DNA of 64,000 nt from Paraconexibacter algicola (GCF_003044185.1 NZ_PYYB01000002.1:496001-560000); one strand, 5' to 3'; positions 37,457 to 45,252 are shown, counted from the stretch's first letter. Notes: a model not told the origin generated them from the sequence alone. Numbers and translations are program-made.

Positions 37457-38233
37457 ATGACCACACGCAGCGACGCCGGGGCGCAGACGCCGACGGCCAC
37501 GGGCGCCCCGGGCGGCCCCGGGGCGGTCCGGCTGGACGGCGTCGCGTTCGCGCACCGGCCGCGTCGCGGCGGGCCGGTGCCGGCGGTCGACGGGCTGTCG
37601 CTGCACGCCGCCCCCGGTGAGGTCGTGGCGCTCGTCGGCCCCTCCGGCTGCGGCAAGACGACGCTGCTGGAGCTCGTCTGCGGCCTCGTCGCCCCCGACG
37701 CGGGGACGGTCGCCGCCGACCCGGCGGTGCTGATGCCCCAGCGCGACCAGCTGCTGCCCTGGCTGACCGCGCTGGACAACGCGGCGCTCGGCCCGCGGCT
37801 GGCGGGCGTCGGCCGGGACGCGGCGCGGACCGCCGCCCGGCCGCTGTTCGAGCGCTTCGGCCTCGCCGGCTTCGAGCAGGCCCGCCCGGACGAGCTGTCC
37901 GGCGGCATGCGCCAGCGCGTCGCGTTCCTGCGCACGCTGCTCGCCGGCCGGCCGGTGCTGTGCCTCGACGAGCCGTTCGCCGCCCTGGACGCCCTGACCC
38001 GCGAGGAGCTGCGCGCCTGGCTCGCCGGTGCGCTGGCCACGGAGCCGCGCACCGTCCTGCTCGTCACGCACGACGTCGAGGAGGCGGCCGTGCTCGCCGA
38101 CCGCGTGCTCGTCCTCTCCCCCCGGCCCGCGCGCGTGATCGCCGAGGTCGCGGTCGACGCGCCGCGCCCCCGGACCGGCACCGACCCCGCGGTGCTCGAG
38201 GTCCGCTCCGCCGTCCTGGAGGCCCTGCGCTGA
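37457..38233 (+). CDS. thiZ: ABC transporter ATPase, thiamin-precursor uptake
   Basis: A 258-aa ABC ATPase of the nitrate/sulfonate/taurine type. It has Walker A GPSGCGKTTL (about residue 61), the Q-loop MPQRDQLLPWLT, signature LSGGMRQR, Walker B VLCLDEPFAALD and the switch His in THDVEEA. TPP riboswitch control and the THI5/NMT1-like binding protein two genes on identify it as the ThiZ component of a ThiXYZ hydroxymethylpyrimidine importer. Its stop overlaps the permease start (TGATG). Confidence 0.9.
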   Translation: MTTRSDAGAQTPTATGAPGGPGAVRLDGVAFAHRPRRGGPVPAVDGLSLHAAPGEVVALVGPSGCGKTTLLELVCGLVAPDAGTVAADPAVLMPQRDQLLPWLTALDNAALGPRLAGVGRDAARTAARPLFERFGLAGFEQARPDELSGGMRQRVAFLRTLLAGRPVLCLDEPFAALDALTREELRAWLAGALATEPRTVLLVTHDVEEAAVLADRVLVLSPRPARVIAEVAVDAPRPRTGTDPAVLEVRSAVLEALR

Positions 38234-38979
38234 TGCTCGCCGCGCTGCTCGTGCTCGCGTTCCTCGGCGTCTGGCAGGCCTACACGTCGATCGGCGGGCC
38301 CGGCGAGCTGATCCTGCCCTCGCCGCTGCAGATCGGCGAGGCGCTCATCGACGACCGCGACCTGCTGTGGGACGACTTCCTCGTCACCGCGACCGAGGTC
38401 GGCCTCGGCGTCCTCTGCGCCCTCGTCGTCGGCTTCGTCGCCGCGGTCGCGCTGCACCGCAGCCCGCTGCTGCGCCGCGCCACCTACCCGCTGCTCGTCG
38501 GCTCGCAGGCGGTCCCGATCGTCGTGCTGGCGCCACTGCTGGTCTTCTGGCTGGGGTTCGGCCTGGGCCCGAAGCTCGCCATCATCACGATCATCTGCTT
38601 CTTCCCCGTGGCCGTCACGACCCTCGACGCGCTCGACCGGACCGACCCGGACCGGCGCAAGCTCCTGCGCACGCTCGGCGCCAGCCCGCGCCAGGTGTTC
38701 TGGTGGGCGGAGGCGCCGGCCGCCGCGCCGGCGGCGCTCTCCGGCGCCCGGATCGCCGTCGCGATCGCGGTCATCGGCGCCGTGCTCGCAGAGGACTCCG
38801 GGTCCAACTCGGGCCTCGGCCACCTGCTCAAGCAGTCCAACGGCCAGCTCGAGACCGCCCGCGCCTGGGCCGCGGTCGTCGTGCTGGCCGCGTTCGCCGT
38901 CACCCTCTTCTACGCCCTGGTCCTCGCGGAGCGCCGTCTCCTGCCGTGGGCCGCCCGACCCGGAGGATCCCCTCGATGA
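38233..38979 (+). CDS. thiX: ABC transporter permease, thiamin-precursor uptake
   Basis: A 248-aa permease of the SsuC/ThiX type with about six membrane helices and a binding-protein-dependent transport loop (LDALDRTDPDRRKLLRTLGASPRQVFWWAEAPAAAP) that contacts the ATPase. It begins with the first membrane helix LAALLVLAFLGVWQAY. The start overlaps thiZ by one base and the end overlaps the binding-protein gene by four (ATGA), so the three are translated as a unit under the TPP riboswitch. Confidence 0.9.
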   Translation: MLAALLVLAFLGVWQAYTSIGGPGELILPSPLQIGEALIDDRDLLWDDFLVTATEVGLGVLCALVVGFVAAVALHRSPLLRRATYPLLVGSQAVPIVVLAPLLVFWLGFGLGPKLAIITIICFFPVAVTTLDALDRTDPDRRKLLRTLGASPRQVFWWAEAPAAAPAALSGARIAVAIAVIGAVLAEDSGSNSGLGHLLKQSNGQLETARAWAAVVVLAAFAVTLFYALVLAERRLLPWAARPGGSPR

Positions 38980-40019
38980 CCCGCCGCTCCCCCGCCGCGC
39001 TGCTGTGCCTGCTGCTCCTGCCCGTCGCCCTCCTGCTGTCGGCCTGCGGGTCCAAGGAGGACGACATCGCGGGCACGCCGCAGACGCAGAAGCTGACGCT
39101 GATGCTCGACTACTTCCCCAACGCCGACCACGCGGGGATCTACGCCGCGCAGGCGTCGGGCGCGTTCGCGAAGGTCGGCCTCGACGTCGACATCCAGACC
39201 CCGTCGGACCCGTCGGCCCCGCTGAAGCTCGTCGAGGCGGGCCGCGCCGACCTGGCGATCTCCTACGAGCCCGAGCTGCTGCTCGCCCGGGACAAGGGCG
39301 CGAAGCTCGTGGCGGTCGGGGCGATCGTCAACAAGCCCCTGACCTCGCTGATGGCGCTGGGCAAGGAGAAGATCACGCGCGTGGAGGACCTGCGCGGCAA
39401 GACGGTCGGCACCGCCGGCATCCCCTACCAGGCCGCGTACCTGAAGACGATCCTCGAGGAGGCGGGCGTGCCGCCCGAGGACGTGAAGACCGTCGACGTC
39501 GGCTTCAACCTCGTGCCCGCGATGATCTCCGGAAAGGTCGACGCGACGCTCGGCGCGTTCTGGAACTACGAGGGCACGCAGCTGCAGCGGGAGAAGAAGG
39601 ACCCGGACATCATCCGCATGGAGACCGTCGGGGTCCCGACCTACGACGAGCTCGTCGTCGTCGCCTCCGAGGAGACGACGAAGGACCGCGGCGCGCTGGT
39701 GCGCCGGTTCTTCCAGGCGCTGCGCCAGGGCACCGAGCAGGTCCGGGCCGACCCGGCGGCGGGCGTCACGCCGCTGCTGAAGGCCAACCCGGACCTCGAC
39801 CGCGGCCTCCAGGAGGCGGTCGTGCGCAAGACGCTGCCGGTGTTCTTCCCGGCCGACGACGAGGACCCGTTCGGCTACATGGATCCGTCGCAGTGGCGCG
39901 CCTACGGGCGCTGGATGCTCGACCGCGGGCTGATCACCAAGGAGATCGACCCGACGTCGCTGACGAACGAGTTCCTGCCGGGCGCCCCGATCGGCAACGA
40001 GCGCGAGGGCCTGGACTGA
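38976..40019 (+). CDS. thiY: THI5/NMT1-like substrate-binding lipoprotein
   Basis: A 347-aa lipoprotein (signal ending LLLSAC, Cys near residue 24). The mature part starts with KLTLMLDYFPNADHAGIYAAQASGAF, the hallmark of ThiY and the yeast THI5 family, followed by LRGKTVGTAGIPYQAAYL and DATLGAFWNYEG. ThiY proteins bind formylaminopyrimidine or hydroxymethylpyrimidine for thiamin salvage. Substrate is inferred from family plus riboswitch. A hairpin follows the gene. Confidence 0.9.
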   Translation: MTRRSPAALLCLLLLPVALLLSACGSKEDDIAGTPQTQKLTLMLDYFPNADHAGIYAAQASGAFAKVGLDVDIQTPSDPSAPLKLVEAGRADLAISYEPELLLARDKGAKLVAVGAIVNKPLTSLMALGKEKITRVEDLRGKTVGTAGIPYQAAYLKTILEEAGVPPEDVKTVDVGFNLVPAMISGKVDATLGAFWNYEGTQLQREKKDPDIIRMETVGVPTYDELVVVASEETTKDRGALVRRFFQALRQGTEQVRADPAAGVTPLLKANPDLDRGLQEAVVRKTLPVFFPADDEDPFGYMDPSQWRAYGRWMLDRGLITKEIDPTSLTNEFLPGAPIGNEREGLD

Positions 40020-41420: not shown

Positions 41421-42119
41421 ATGCCTGAGCCGGAGCGGACATCGGTCACGTACGCCACCAGGGCCGAGGAGCTTCGCGCCTCGCCGCCCATGTTCCGCTC
41501 GCCGCTGCTCGACAAGGTCACGCGGGTGCACCCGGCGGTCGTGCCCACCCTCTTCGTCCCGATCATCGGGGCGTTCCTGTACTTCGCGGTCGACCGCGGT
41601 CTCGGCTCGCCGCTCGGGCTCGTGCTGTGGGTGGCGATCGGCTACGTCGCCTGGACGCTCACCGAGTACTGGCTGCACCGGATCGTCTTCCACTTCGAGC
41701 CCGAGAAGGGCATCGGGGCGCGGCTGCACTGGATGATCCACGGGGTCCACCACGATCATCCCAACGACCCGATGCGGCTGGTCATGCCGCCGTCGGCGAG
41801 CCTCCCGCTCGGGGCGCTGTTCGTCGGGCTCTACCACCTGCTGCTGCCCGCCGGCCAGGCCAACGCGCTGTGCGCCGGCTTCTTCGCCGGCTACCTCGCG
41901 TACGACATGACGCACTACCTGCTGCACCACCGGGTGCCGCGGTCGCGGCTCGGGCGGCGCCTGCGCGAGCACCACATGCGCCACCACTTCCAGGACGACA
42001 CCGTCGCGTTCGGGATCAGCGCCCCCTGGTGGGACACGGTGTTCGGCACCGCGCCCGCGTCGCGTCGTGCTCAGGCGTCCTCGCCGGTCTCCGAGCCGGC
42101 GCCCCAGACGCGCTCGTAG
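41421..42119 (+). CDS. Scs7/FA2H-like fatty-acid (sphingolipid) hydroxylase
   Basis: A 232-aa di-iron membrane hydroxylase of the sterol desaturase/fatty-acid hydroxylase superfamily. The histidine boxes are HRIVFHFEP, HWMIHGVHHDHPNDPMRLVM, YDMTHYLLHHRVP and EHHMRHHFQ. The HGVHH(x)nP(x)D(x)nRLVMPP form is that of yeast Scs7 and human FA2H, which 2-hydroxylate the N-acyl chain of ceramides. Two hydrophobic segments lie on each side of the first boxes. Its last 17 codons overlap the end of the convergent GNAT gene by 49 bp. The neighbouring genes make a sphingolipid role plausible. Confidence 0.85.
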   Translation: MPEPERTSVTYATRAEELRASPPMFRSPLLDKVTRVHPAVVPTLFVPIIGAFLYFAVDRGLGSPLGLVLWVAIGYVAWTLTEYWLHRIVFHFEPEKGIGARLHWMIHGVHHDHPNDPMRLVMPPSASLPLGALFVGLYHLLLPAGQANALCAGFFAGYLAYDMTHYLLHHRVPRSRLGRRLREHHMRHHFQDDTVAFGISAPWWDTVFGTAPASRRAQASSPVSEPAPQTRS

Positions 42120-43231
42120 ACCCGGTAGCGCTTGACGATCGTCCCGCCCATGGCCTCCATGGCGCGGTTCATCGCCTTGTTCGTCTCGAGGATCCAGCCC
42201 ATCTCGCCGCCCTTCTGCGGCCGCACCTCGGCCATGTCGAAGTGCTCGACGTACATCTTCGCGGCGACACCGGTGTGCTGGAACTCGGGCTTGACGCCGA
42301 GGAAGCCGACGCGCACGCGATCGATCCGCCGCCCCTTGGTGAGGAACTTCCACCAGCCCAGCGGCAGCAGGCGGCCGTTCATCTGCCGCAGCACCTGGTT
42401 GACGTCCGGGACGGTGATGGCGACGCCGACGGTCTCGCCCTCGGCGGTCTCGGTGACCATGAACCAGTGCTTGTCGAAGACGAGCTGGAGCTCCTGCGCG
42501 TACTGGTCGAGGTCCTTGTCGTCGTAGGGCGAGAAGCCCCAGTTGCGCGACCAGGCGCTGTTGTAGACCTCCTTGAAGCGGTCCACGTCCTTGCGCAGCG
42601 AGCGGCGCGACATCTTGCGCAGGCGGATCCCGTGCTTGGTCTCGACCTGGTCGGCGAGCTCGAACAGGATCGGCATCATCTTCGAGCGGTCGGAGACCTC
42701 GAGGTTCCACATCCAGAGGTCCATCGCCTTGTCGAGGCCCGCCGCCTCCTCGCAGCGCGCGAAGACGTACGGCGGGTGCCACGGCTGCTTGATCATCGGG
42801 TCGAGGTCGTAGCCCTCGTACAGGACCCCGGACTCGTCGTTCATCGTGAAGTCGGCGGGCCCGACCATGCGGTCGCAGCCCTTCCCGCGCAGCCACGCCT
42901 CGGCGGCGTCGAGCAGCGCCGGGAGGACCTCCGGGTCGTCCTCGATCTCGAGGAAGCCGAACCAGCCCCAGGACGTGTCGTGGTAGCGGTTGTAGGCGTG
43001 GTCGACGTGGGCGCTGAGGCGCCCGACGACGCGGTCGCCGCGGACGGCGAGCAGGTACTCGGCGTCGCCGTGCTTGAAGAAGGCGTTGAGCCGGCGGCTC
43101 AGGAACAGCCGCCGCTCCAGCCGCAGCGGGGGCACCCAGCGCGGCGAAGTAGCATGGAGGCGGTACGGGAGCTCGACGAACTCCCGCAGGTCCCGACGCG
43201 AGCGGACGGGACGGATCTCGACGGTGCTCAT
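42071..43231 (-). CDS. GNAT-fold acyltransferase resembling bacterial ceramide synthase
   Basis: A 386-aa protein of the large GNAT-like group whose characterised member is Caulobacter bCerS (bacterial ceramide synthase). Features I associate with that group are the early FVELPYRLHATSPRWVPPLRLERR, FFKHGDAEYLLAVRGDRVVGRLSAHVD, GWFGFLEIEDD, VGPADFTMNDESGVLYEGYD and a C-terminal GNAT core with VGFLGVKPEFQHTGVAAKMY. Catalysis would be N-acylation of a sphingoid base. It is divergent from the serine palmitoyltransferase-like gene with only 16 bp between start codons. Homology to bCerS is from memory and should be tested by search. Confidence 0.7.
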   Translation of the reverse strand: MSTVEIRPVRSRRDLREFVELPYRLHATSPRWVPPLRLERRLFLSRRLNAFFKHGDAEYLLAVRGDRVVGRLSAHVDHAYNRYHDTSWGWFGFLEIEDDPEVLPALLDAAEAWLRGKGCDRMVGPADFTMNDESGVLYEGYDLDPMIKQPWHPPYVFARCEEAAGLDKAMDLWMWNLEVSDRSKMMPILFELADQVETKHGIRLRKMSRRSLRKDVDRFKEVYNSAWSRNWGFSPYDDKDLDQYAQELQLVFDKHWFMVTETAEGETVGVAITVPDVNQVLRQMNGRLLPLGWWKFLTKGRRIDRVRVGFLGVKPEFQHTGVAAKMYVEHFDMAEVRPQKGGEMGWILETNKAMNRAMEAMGGTIVKRYRVYERVWGAGSETGEDA

Positions 43232-43247
43232 CGAAAGAGGACCCTAT

Positions 43248-44519
43248 ATGTCGCACACCGCCATCGACGTCTTCGCCAAGGTCCGGGGTCACGAGCGTGA
43301 GGCGCAGCTGCGCGCCGCCCGCGACGCCGACCTGCTCCCCTACTTCCGCACGCTCGACGGCCCGGCGCGGCCGGTCGTGCGGATGGAGGGTGCGGAGCGG
43401 ATCATGCTCGGCTCCAACAACTACCTGGGCCTGACCGAGGACGCCCGCGTCCTGCAGGGCGCCCGGGACGCGCTGGAGCAGTACGGGACGGGCCTGACGG
43501 GCTCACGGCTGCTGAACGGCACGATCCCGCTGCACACGCAGCTCGAGGAGGAGATCGCCGACTGGATGGGCACGGAGGACGCGATCGTCTTCACGACCGG
43601 CCACCAGGCGAACGTCGGCACGCTGGGGACGCTGCTGGCCCCGGGCGACACCGTCGTGGCGGACTCCGGCGACCACGCGTCGATCCTCGACGGCTGCCTG
43701 CTGTCGAAGGCGAAGCTCCGACCGTTCCGCCACAACCGGCTGGACAAGCTCGAGCGGACGCTCGAGAAGGCCGCGGGCGACGGCGGCGGCGTCCTGGTCG
43801 TCGTCGACGGCGTGTTCTCGATGGAGGGCGACATCGCCCAGGTCCCCGCGATCTGCGACCTCTGCGAGCGCTTCGGCGCGCGGCTGATGGTCGACGAGGC
43901 GCACGGCGCCGGGGTGCTCGGGCCGACCGGGGCCGGGACGGCCGAGCTGTTCGGGGTCGCCGACCGGGTCGACCTGCGGATGGGCACGTTCTCGAAGTCG
44001 CTGGCGTCGTGCGGGGGCTTCATCGCGGGCTCGCGCGAGGTCGTCGACTACCTGCGCGTGTCCTCGCGCGCGTTCCTCTTCACGGCCGCCGCGGTGCCGG
44101 CCGCGGTCGGGGCGGCGCTCGCCGCGCTGCGGGTCCTGCGCTCCCCCGACGGGCCGCCGCTGCTGGCCGCGGTGCTCGACAACGCCCGCTACCTGCGTGA
44201 CGGGCTGCAGGAGCGCGGCTTCGCGGTCGTGCAGCCCCAGCCGCTCGGGGACGGCCGTGACGTCGTCACGCCGATCGTCCCCGTGCTGGTCGGGGACGAC
44301 TGGAAGGCCGTGCTGCTGTGGAAGGCCCTGTACGACGCCGGCGTGTTCGTCAACACGGCGCTGCACCCGGCGGTGCCGCCCGGTGGGGCGCTGCTGCGCA
44401 CGAGCGTCATGGCCTCCCACGACCGGGCGACGCTCGACCGCGCGCTCGACGCGTTCTCGTCGGTGAAGGCCGCGTTCGAGGCCGAGCACGGGCCGCTGCC
44501 GACGTCGTTCCACGGCTGA
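43248..44519 (+). CDS. Serine palmitoyltransferase-like alpha-oxoamine synthase
   Basis: A 423-aa PLP enzyme of the alpha-oxoamine synthase family (SPT, KBL, BioF). Active-site elements are GSNNYLGL, His 143 in DHAS, VDEAHGAG with Asp 216 and His 219, and the PLP Lys 250 in GTFSKSLASCGGF. The GTFSKS form, FRHN (about 160) and the C-terminal WKALYDAGVFVNTALHPAVPPGGALLRTS resemble bacterial serine palmitoyltransferase more than glycine C-acetyltransferase (GTLGKA) or BioF. It would condense serine with an acyl thioester to 3-ketosphinganine. No tdh or bio genes are adjacent. AAAGAGG precedes the ATG. Confidence 0.8.
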   Translation: MSHTAIDVFAKVRGHEREAQLRAARDADLLPYFRTLDGPARPVVRMEGAERIMLGSNNYLGLTEDARVLQGARDALEQYGTGLTGSRLLNGTIPLHTQLEEEIADWMGTEDAIVFTTGHQANVGTLGTLLAPGDTVVADSGDHASILDGCLLSKAKLRPFRHNRLDKLERTLEKAAGDGGGVLVVVDGVFSMEGDIAQVPAICDLCERFGARLMVDEAHGAGVLGPTGAGTAELFGVADRVDLRMGTFSKSLASCGGFIAGSREVVDYLRVSSRAFLFTAAAVPAAVGAALAALRVLRSPDGPPLLAAVLDNARYLRDGLQERGFAVVQPQPLGDGRDVVTPIVPVLVGDDWKAVLLWKALYDAGVFVNTALHPAVPPGGALLRTSVMASHDRATLDRALDAFSSVKAAFEAEHGPLPTSFHG

Positions 44520-44558: not shown

Positions 44559-44874
44559 CGGTCACGACCGGTCGGTTCGGACGGGCGTACCAACCGGATC
44601 ACGGGGCGTCACGCGTCGGTCACGAAAAAGGCGCTCTGAGCGGATGTTGTCGAGGTTCACACGTTGACCCGGCCCGGCGACCTGACGTAGTTTCGAGGGG
44701 CGTTGCCGACGCGTCGACGGGGCGGGCACCGCGCAGAGGCCGGGTCTCGTGGGACGACCTGCCGCCGCCACCTGCGCGATCCGCCGAGGGACCCGACGCC
44801 GCTGGTGCACGCGGACGCCCAACACGAGGATTTCCCGTCGTGCCACCCCGACGGGAGGGAGGACATCTCACCCC
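44559..44874 (+). promoter_or_regulatory. Long upstream region of mIHF gene: promoter and ribosome-site hairpin
   Basis: This gene-free stretch has TTGACC (44664-44669) and TAGTTT (44688-44693) with an 18-bp spacer, giving a leader of about 175 nt. That is exceptional here, where most leaders are absent. Near its end an 8-bp stem (44833-44840 with 44849-44856) runs into the ribosome site GGGAGGGAGG (44853-44862), so the hairpin could occlude it. The rest shows no coding bias or recognised RNA family. Confidence 0.5.
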
Positions 44875-45252
44875 ATGCAGCATTCGACGACCCCTGGGCC
44901 GCAGCATCTGCGCGCCCTCGCCAAGGCCAACGAGGTCCGCCTCGCCCGGGCCGAGCTCAAGCGCCGCGTCCTCGCGGGCGAGCTCCGCGCCGCGGAGGTG
45001 ATCCTCGAGTGCTCGTGGGAGGCGGAGTCGATGACCGTCGCCGACCTCCTGATGGCCCAGAAGCGCTGGGGTCGCACGCGCTGCCGCACGTTCCTGCAGC
45101 GCGTCCCGCTCTCGGAGACGAAGACGATCGGCTCGATGACCGAGCGCCAGCGCCGCGCGGTCGCCGCGATGCTCGACGGCTCCGCCCCCACCTCCGGCAC
45201 GCCGGACCGCAGCGGGCGCTTCGACCGCTCCCGCGAGGCCGCGCTGGTCTAG
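44875..45252 (+). CDS. mihF: Integration host factor, actinobacterial type (mIHF)
   Basis: A 125-aa nucleoid protein. The mIHF pattern is clear: HLRALAKANEVRLARAELKRRVLAGELRAAEVI, a middle MTVADLLMAQKRWGRTRCRTFLQRV (the helix-two-turn-helix DNA contact), then IGSMTERQRRAVAAML. The characterised mycobacterial and Streptomyces proteins bend DNA and are essential or pleiotropic. An Asp/Ser/Arg-rich tail of about 20 residues is added. The ATG at 44875 follows a strong GGGAGGGAGG site; longer in-frame starts give only Arg/Thr-rich junk. Confidence 0.88.
   Translation: MQHSTTPGPQHLRALAKANEVRLARAELKRRVLAGELRAAEVILECSWEAESMTVADLLMAQKRWGRTRCRTFLQRVPLSETKTIGSMTERQRRAVAAMLDGSAPTSGTPDRSGRFDRSREAALV

What the first reader, a model, noticed from the sequence alone, without database searches (positions are those of the whole stretch)
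41421..44519. Compact sphingolipid-type module: FA2H/Scs7 hydroxylase, bCerS-like GNAT and SPT-like enzyme
Three adjacent genes encode what looks like three steps of ceramide chemistry. The SPT-like protein has the GTFSKS lysine loop, the FRHN segment and the FVN...PPG end typical of bacterial serine palmitoyltransferase. The 386-aa GNAT protein resembles the Caulobacter bacterial ceramide synthase group. The third protein has the exact HGxHHxxPxDxxRLVxPP box of Scs7/FA2H ceramide 2-hydroxylases. Sphingolipids are well known from Bacteroidetes and alpha-proteobacteria, not from Thermoleophilia. No ceramide reductase or dedicated ACP gene is visible, so the route may be incomplete here or use unlinked genes.
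Basis: partly seen in the sequence, partly recalled or inferred. Interest (0 to 1): 0.88.

Follow-up and report, generated by a model that had tools for sequence, protein, structure and literature searches.

The report
Ceramide-type lipid genes in Solirubrobacterales
A soil actinobacterium, like every well-assembled member of its order sampled here, carries a paired set of genes that look like the first and N-acylating enzymes of sphingolipid synthesis plus a ceramide-type hydroxylase, so a whole Gram-positive order may make sphingolipids, which a simple lipid extraction could check.

Summary
Window 41421-44519 encodes an Scs7/FA2H-type hydroxylase (41421-42119 +), a tandem-GNAT protein of the YghO/CC_1154 (bacterial ceramide synthase) family (42071-43231 -) and an SPT-type alpha-oxoamine synthase (43248-44519 +). 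In a maximum-likelihood tree the PLP enzyme lies in a 100/100-supported clade with all three solved bacterial SPTs and outside KBL, BioF and ALAS. Relatives of the GNAT sit beside SPT genes and a ceramide reductase (CerR) in Rubrobacter, Streptomyces, Nonomuraea and E. coli. SPT and GNAT occur in 83 of 83 good genomes of the order, head to head in 85 of 114 genomes, with start codons a median 16 bp apart around a conserved -10-like element. The hydroxylase keeps all ten Scs7 metal histidines. It is in 75 of 83 genomes, usually unlinked; next to the GNAT in seven sampled genomes, in tandem in five. No CerR-grade homologue was found in this genome: best 142 bits, against 229-245 for independent CerRs. 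The 3-keto reduction is therefore unassigned, and no product is known. Best reading: a reduced, order-wide core of a ceramide-type pathway. Sphingolipid genes in some Gram-positives are already reported; order-wide universality, the missing CerR and the regulatory layout look new.

The parts
41421..42119 (+). Scs7/FA2H-type fatty-acid 2-hydroxylase homologue (232 aa), convergent with and overlapping the 3' end of the GNAT gene by 49 bp
   Evidence: Pfam PF04116 E 3e-20; only PDB match Scs7 4zr1/4zr0 E 8e-31; all ten Scs7 metal-ligand histidines (244,249,268,271,272,326,330,345,348,349) kept; orthologues in 75/83 good genomes of the order
42071..43231 (-). bCerS-like tandem GNAT N-acyltransferase of the YghO/CC_1154 family (386 aa)
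   Evidence: tblastn to E. coli YghO 32% over 96%, E 2e-51, and to GNATs beside SPT in Rubrobacter, Streptomyces, Roseomonas, Sphingomonas; AlphaFold2 model pLDDT 79.5 matches tandem-GNAT folds; 83/83 good genomes of the order
43248..44519 (+). SPT-type alpha-oxoamine synthase (423 aa), PLP lysine in GTFSKS
   Evidence: best PDB match Sphingobacterium SPT 314 bits, KBL 265; inside SPT clade 100/100, outside KBL/BioF/ALAS; motif table; 83/83 good genomes of the order
43232..43247 (.). 16-bp gap between the two divergent start codons
   Evidence: median gap 16 bp in 46 loci of the order
43241..43246 (-). conserved -10-like element TAGGGT, 9 nt before the GNAT start codon (suggests leaderless GNAT transcription)
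   Evidence: TANNNT 6-10 nt before the GNAT start in 37 of 40 loci, shuffled mean 2.1, maximum 8

Best explanation
The SPT-type enzyme condenses an acyl thioester with an amino acid (most likely L-serine) to a 3-keto long-chain base. The head-to-head GNAT N-acylates it, as bCerS does, to a (3-keto)ceramide-type lipid. The Scs7-type di-metal hydroxylase adds a 2-hydroxyl to the N-acyl chain, either on the lipid or on the fatty acid before transfer. Reduction of the 3-keto group must be done by an unlinked, non-CerR reductase (as BT_0972 does in Bacteroides) or not at all. Shown by sequence: family membership of the three proteins, order-wide conservation and pairing of SPT and GNAT, and the absence of a CerR-grade homologue. 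Inferred: substrates, order of steps, product, and the hydroxylase's place in the same pathway.
For: SPT clade with solved SPTs at 100/100; SPT-clade motifs; nearest solved structure is an SPT; GNAT homologous to YghO/CC_1154 and its relatives lie in SPT-GNAT-CerR operons of Rubrobacteria and a Streptomyces plasmid, and divergently beside SPT in Nonomuraea; SPT and GNAT in 83/83 good genomes each, adjacent and divergent in 85/114, and 10 more within 6 kb, with an ABC-2 exporter set between them where checked; the hydroxylase is Scs7-like with all metal histidines, strong orthologues in the phylum sample occur only in this order, it lies next to the GNAT in seven sampled genomes, and an Acidisoma plasmid clusters a relative with SPT, SDR and GNAT. 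Myxobacterial FA2H homologues tied to sphingolipids are cited in PMC10002949.
Against: No CerR: own best 142 bits against 229-245 for independent CerRs, no better than HpnA. No dedicated ACP or acyl-ACP synthetase is in the locus. SPT scores are below the NCBIfam equivalog cut-offs. YghO-type GNATs also occur without a nearby SPT. The hydroxylase is unlinked in most genomes and absent from some. No sphingolipid report for these bacteria was found in the library.
Confidence: 0.68

Rival explanations
1. The SPT-GNAT pair makes a related N-acyl amino-lipid from another amino acid: 1-deoxyceramide from alanine or glycine, or a capnine-type sulfonolipid from cysteate.
For: Alpha-oxoamine synthases switch amino acid easily (general knowledge); a cysteate acyltransferase is also a PDB match (28eh, 217 bits); the enzyme is below the SPT equivalog cut-offs.
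Against: Solved SPTs match far better (314 and 267 bits) and the tree groups it with SPTs; the cysteate enzyme could not be placed in the tree because its sequence was not at hand.
Confidence: 0.15
2. The pair makes long-chain 1,2-diol lipids of the kind reported from thermophilic bacteria, rather than ceramides.
For: Thermomicrobium roseum membranes are made of 1,2-diols whose biosynthesis was unexplained when its genome was published (PMC2615216). A report of such diols in Thermoleophilum and of an SPT homologue in their synthesis is recalled from memory only and could not be verified.
Against: A diol has no amine, so it would not explain the close pairing with an N-acyltransferase of the bCerS family.
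Confidence: 0.08
3. The PLP enzyme is a KBL- or BioF-type housekeeping enzyme and the GNAT neighbour is incidental.
For: KBL and BioF profiles score close behind SPT (362 and 353 against 389 bits).
Against: The tree excludes it from KBL, BioF and ALAS at 100/100; the genome has a separate BioF-like paralogue; the pairing with GNAT is kept across the order.
Confidence: 0.04
4. SPT and GNAT form a ceramide core, but the hydroxylase acts on other lipids (free or phospholipid fatty acids) and is only locally adjacent.
For: Unlinked in most genomes, in varied neighbourhoods; absent from several genomes that keep SPT and GNAT.
Against: Directly follows the GNAT in tandem in five sampled genomes of three genera and in locus L100; Scs7 is its only solved relative; clustered with SPT and GNAT in Acidisoma.
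Confidence: 0.3

Closest known systems
Caulobacter-type bacterial ceramide pathway (SPT CC_1162, bCerS CC_1154, CerR CC_1164, AcpR, AasR) and its E. coli yghO counterpart
   Same: SPT-clade PLP enzyme and a homologous YghO/CC_1154 GNAT
   Different: No CerR-grade homologue in the genome, no dedicated ACP or acyl-ACP synthetase in the locus, divergent gene pair, Gram-positive lineage
Rubrobacter radiotolerans plasmid SPT-GNAT-CerR operon and similar Rubrobacteria, Streptomyces and Nonomuraea loci
   Same: Same phylum, same two enzyme families side by side
   Different: They keep a CerR next to the pair; no Scs7-type gene was seen in the annotated Rubrobacter and Streptomyces stretches
Yeast Scs7 / animal FA2H
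   Same: HGxHHxxPxDxxRLVxPP box and all ten metal histidines
   Different: Stand-alone, without the N-terminal cytochrome b5 domain known from Scs7
Acidisoma sp. PAMC 29798 plasmid cluster (sterol desaturase family, AOS, SDR, divergent YghO-type gene)
   Same: Hydroxylase relative, SPT-type enzyme and GNAT together, GNAT divergent
   Different: Includes a classical SDR; hydroxylase and GNAT are only about 35% identical to those here
Sphingobacterium and Bacteroides SPT
   Same: Best-scoring solved SPT, same tree clade
   Different: In the Bacteroides and Parabacteroides records read, the SPT is beside a diacylglycerol-kinase-family gene, not a GNAT

Membership tests
Serine palmitoyltransferase (SPT) | Falls with characterised SPTs, not with KBL, BioF or ALAS | tested here: met
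   40-row SPT clade with three solved SPTs, support 100/100
Serine palmitoyltransferase (SPT) | Passes a curated SPT model cut-off | tested here: not met
   389 bits against a cut-off of 640 (SerpalmtaseCFB), 366 against 500 (SerpalmtaseBetaP); by their names these models were built for other lineages
Serine palmitoyltransferase (SPT) | PLP lysine loop GTFSKS and [FY].N near the acyl-chain end | tested here: met
   Motif table
Serine palmitoyltransferase (SPT) | Uses L-serine and a long-chain acyl thioester | not testable with these tools
   Needs enzyme assay
Bacterial ceramide synthase (bCerS, CC_1154/YghO family) | Full-length homology to the family | tested here: met
   32% to E. coli YghO over 96%; YghO listed as counterpart of CC_1154 in PMC9386255; CC_1154 itself was not compared
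Bacterial ceramide synthase (bCerS, CC_1154/YghO family) | Genomic linkage to SPT | tested here: met
   85 of 114 adjacent and divergent, 10 more within 6 kb
Bacterial ceramide synthase (bCerS, CC_1154/YghO family) | N-acylates a sphingoid base | not testable with these tools
   Needs assay
FA2H/Scs7 2-hydroxylase | Ten metal-binding histidines and signature box | tested here: met
   (ligand numbers of Scs7 recalled from memory)
FA2H/Scs7 2-hydroxylase | 2-hydroxylates ceramide or fatty acyl chains | not testable with these tools
   Needs lipid analysis
Caulobacter-type ceramide pathway | CerR (epimerase-type reductase) | tested here: not met
   Genome best 142 bits; independent CerRs 229-245 and leave-one-out 175-212
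Caulobacter-type ceramide pathway | Dedicated AcpR and AasR | tested here: inconclusive
   None in the locus or among its conserved neighbours; genome-wide not tested

The most novel reading that the evidence does not exclude
A whole order of Gram-positive Actinomycetota makes ceramide-type lipids as a constitutive, near-universal membrane component through a two-gene SPT-bCerS core without CerR, so that the end product is either an unreduced 3-keto-ceramide or is reduced by an unknown enzyme, commonly with Scs7-type 2-hydroxylation.
Probability: 0.35. Interest if true: 0.75.

Novelty: new variant of a known kind. Interest (0 to 1): 0.6.

Why it matters
Sphingolipids are thought of as mainly a eukaryotic, Bacteroidota and proteobacterial trait. 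Universal conservation of SPT and bCerS homologues in Solirubrobacterales, common soil bacteria, would make them a large overlooked source of sphingolipids in soil and would place a FA2H-type hydroxylase in a Gram-positive pathway. It makes the question directly testable, since cultured members of the order exist, and it raises a clear gap: which enzyme, if any, reduces the 3-keto group.

Tried and rejected
CerR search: a profile of four CerRs from SPT-GNAT clusters found only generic epimerase-type SDRs in the genome; the best (C2:288399, L138) is in a minority of the order, and calibration put it at the level of HpnA. A group of SDRs 30-80 kb from SPT in some relatives (G027, G005, G010, G032) was rejected as HpnA-like, on the model match of its member from G045, and because G000 has no clear orthologue. 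Class-III aminotransferase + CerR-like SDR fusions in six genomes were noted but are not universal. A classical SDR from the Acidisoma cluster gave only about 30% generic matches. Neighbourhoods of unlinked hydroxylase genes gave no lipid context. The PDB sequence search for the GNAT found nothing. Literature on long-chain diols and SPT was not held, nor the Nat Chem Biol paper on bacterial ceramide synthesis.

Full report
Observation. The hydroxylase and GNAT genes overlap tail to tail by 49 bp; GNAT and PLP enzyme are head to head with 16 bp between their start codons. The window lies in a 4.7-Mb, 95.6% complete genome; named relatives of the locus come from Solirubrobacterales, Thermoleophilaceae and Svornostia abyssi.

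The PLP enzyme. Best NCBIfam models are two SPT equivalogs, but below cut-off, with KBL and BioF close behind. The best solved relative is Sphingobacterium SPT (314 bits), then S. wittichii SPT 267, KBL 265, S. paucimobilis SPT 260, cysteate acyltransferase 217. Because scores alone do not decide, a tree of 50 sequences was built. All 22 order members form one clade (100/99), nested in a 40-row clade (100/100) that holds the three solved SPTs and every AOS found in GNAT/CerR clusters, and excludes KBL, BioF and ALAS. The genome's second AOS, at C2:633261, groups with a BioF. SPT-clade features are the GTFSKS loop, GSR..NG, and [FY].N before PA.P; FRHN is weakly informative.

The GNAT. It has no PDB sequence match, but an AlphaFold2 model (pLDDT 79.5, pTM 0.78) matches tandem-GNAT folds. 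tblastn shows it is of the YghO family: 32% to E. coli YghO over 96% of its length, and 35-41% to proteins in Rubrobacter, Streptomyces, Roseomonas and Nonomuraea. PMC9386255 lists yghO as the counterpart of Caulobacter CC_1154, the N-acyltransferase (bCerS) gene needed for dihydroceramide. The relatives sit beside SPT-type genes: SPT-GNAT-CerR operons in Rubrobacter radiotolerans and further members of its group and on a Streptomyces plasmid; SPT, ACP, CerR, acyl-AMP ligase and YghO in E. coli; SPT divergent to GNAT with CerR downstream in Nonomuraea. The family also has members with no SPT nearby, so the GNAT alone is not diagnostic.

The hydroxylase. Its only PDB sequence match is Scs7 (E 8e-31), and all ten Scs7 metal-ligand histidines are conserved. 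Strong orthologues (48% or more) in a 397-genome phylum sample are confined to this order. Within the order it is in 75 of 83 good genomes but mostly unlinked, in unrelated neighbourhoods. It lies next to the GNAT in seven sampled genomes: convergent here and in G027, in tandem in G005, G063, G117, G111 and G073 (coordinates), and in tandem also in locus L100. An Acidisoma plasmid has a hydroxylase relative, an SPT-type gene, an SDR and a divergent GNAT in one cluster, and functional FA2H-like enzymes linked to sphingolipids are cited for myxobacteria (PMC10002949).

Conservation and layout. SPT and GNAT are each present in 83 of 83 genomes at least 90% complete. In 85 of 114 genomes they are adjacent and divergent; in 10 more, within 6 kb; an ABC-2-type exporter set lies in between in the three of these examined, L103, L104 and L111. 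The start codons are a median 16 bp apart (46 loci). In 37 of 40 loci with a printed gap a TANNNT element, mostly TAGGGT, lies 6-10 nt before the GNAT start, against a mean of 2.1 in shuffles: a probable -10 element giving a leaderless GNAT transcript. The loci are related, so the shuffle comparison overstates independence, and this is inferred from sequence only.

What is missing. A CerR profile finds nothing convincing. The best hit in this genome scores 142 bits, against 229-245 for CerRs not used to build the profile and 175-212 in leave-one-out tests; HpnA-type SDRs score the same as the hit. Eight relatives also show nothing at CerR level, and the best-hit gene occurs in a minority of the order. 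Bacteroides uses an unrelated SDR, BT_0972, for 3-ketosphinganine (PMC9278070), so the step may be filled by another SDR; a classical SDR from the Acidisoma cluster found only generic matches. No ACP or acyl-ACP synthetase is in the locus.

Verdict. The best-supported reading is a reduced ceramide-type core (SPT + bCerS-like acyltransferase), order-wide in Solirubrobacterales, with a commonly co-occurring FA2H-type hydroxylase. Substrate, product and the keto-reduction step are not shown. Prior literature reports sphingolipid genes in a wide range of Gram-negatives and smaller groups of Gram-positives (PMC11087976) and SPT-like proteins in 40 phyla (PMC11334938), so the kind is known; the order-wide universality, the missing CerR and the regulatory layout are the new part as far as the held literature shows.

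Noticed in passing
window 43229-43250: GNAT and SPT start codons are only 16 bp apart; a TAGGGT -10-like element 9 nt before the GNAT start is conserved across the order, suggesting a leaderless GNAT mRNA and a shared bidirectional control region.
   Followed up: partly
L130-L135 (G087, G105, G051, G048, G070, G022): About 825-aa fusions of a class-III aminotransferase with a CerR-like epimerase domain (about 192 bits with the CerR profile in G051) in six genomes of the order; function unknown.
   Followed up: partly
L103, L104, L111: An ABC-2-type ATPase and two permeases are inserted between SPT and GNAT in one genus, a possible lipid exporter.
   Followed up: partly
L122 10227-12296; L304 3892-5247; L305 6566-8068: An LTA-synthase-family gene lies near the SPT or hydroxylase genes in Rubrobacter, Acidisoma and Novosphingobium; possibly a phosphoglycerol head-group transferase for ceramide.
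   Followed up: no
L099 (CAMCUD010000018.1): A contig labelled Bifidobacterium breve MAG carries a Solirubrobacterales-type locus; the label is probably wrong.
   Followed up: no
window 37457-40019 and 44749-45252: The locus is syntenic across the order: an NMT1/THI5-type ABC transporter upstream, and downstream a small protein that looks by eye like an actinobacterial integration host factor.
   Followed up: partly
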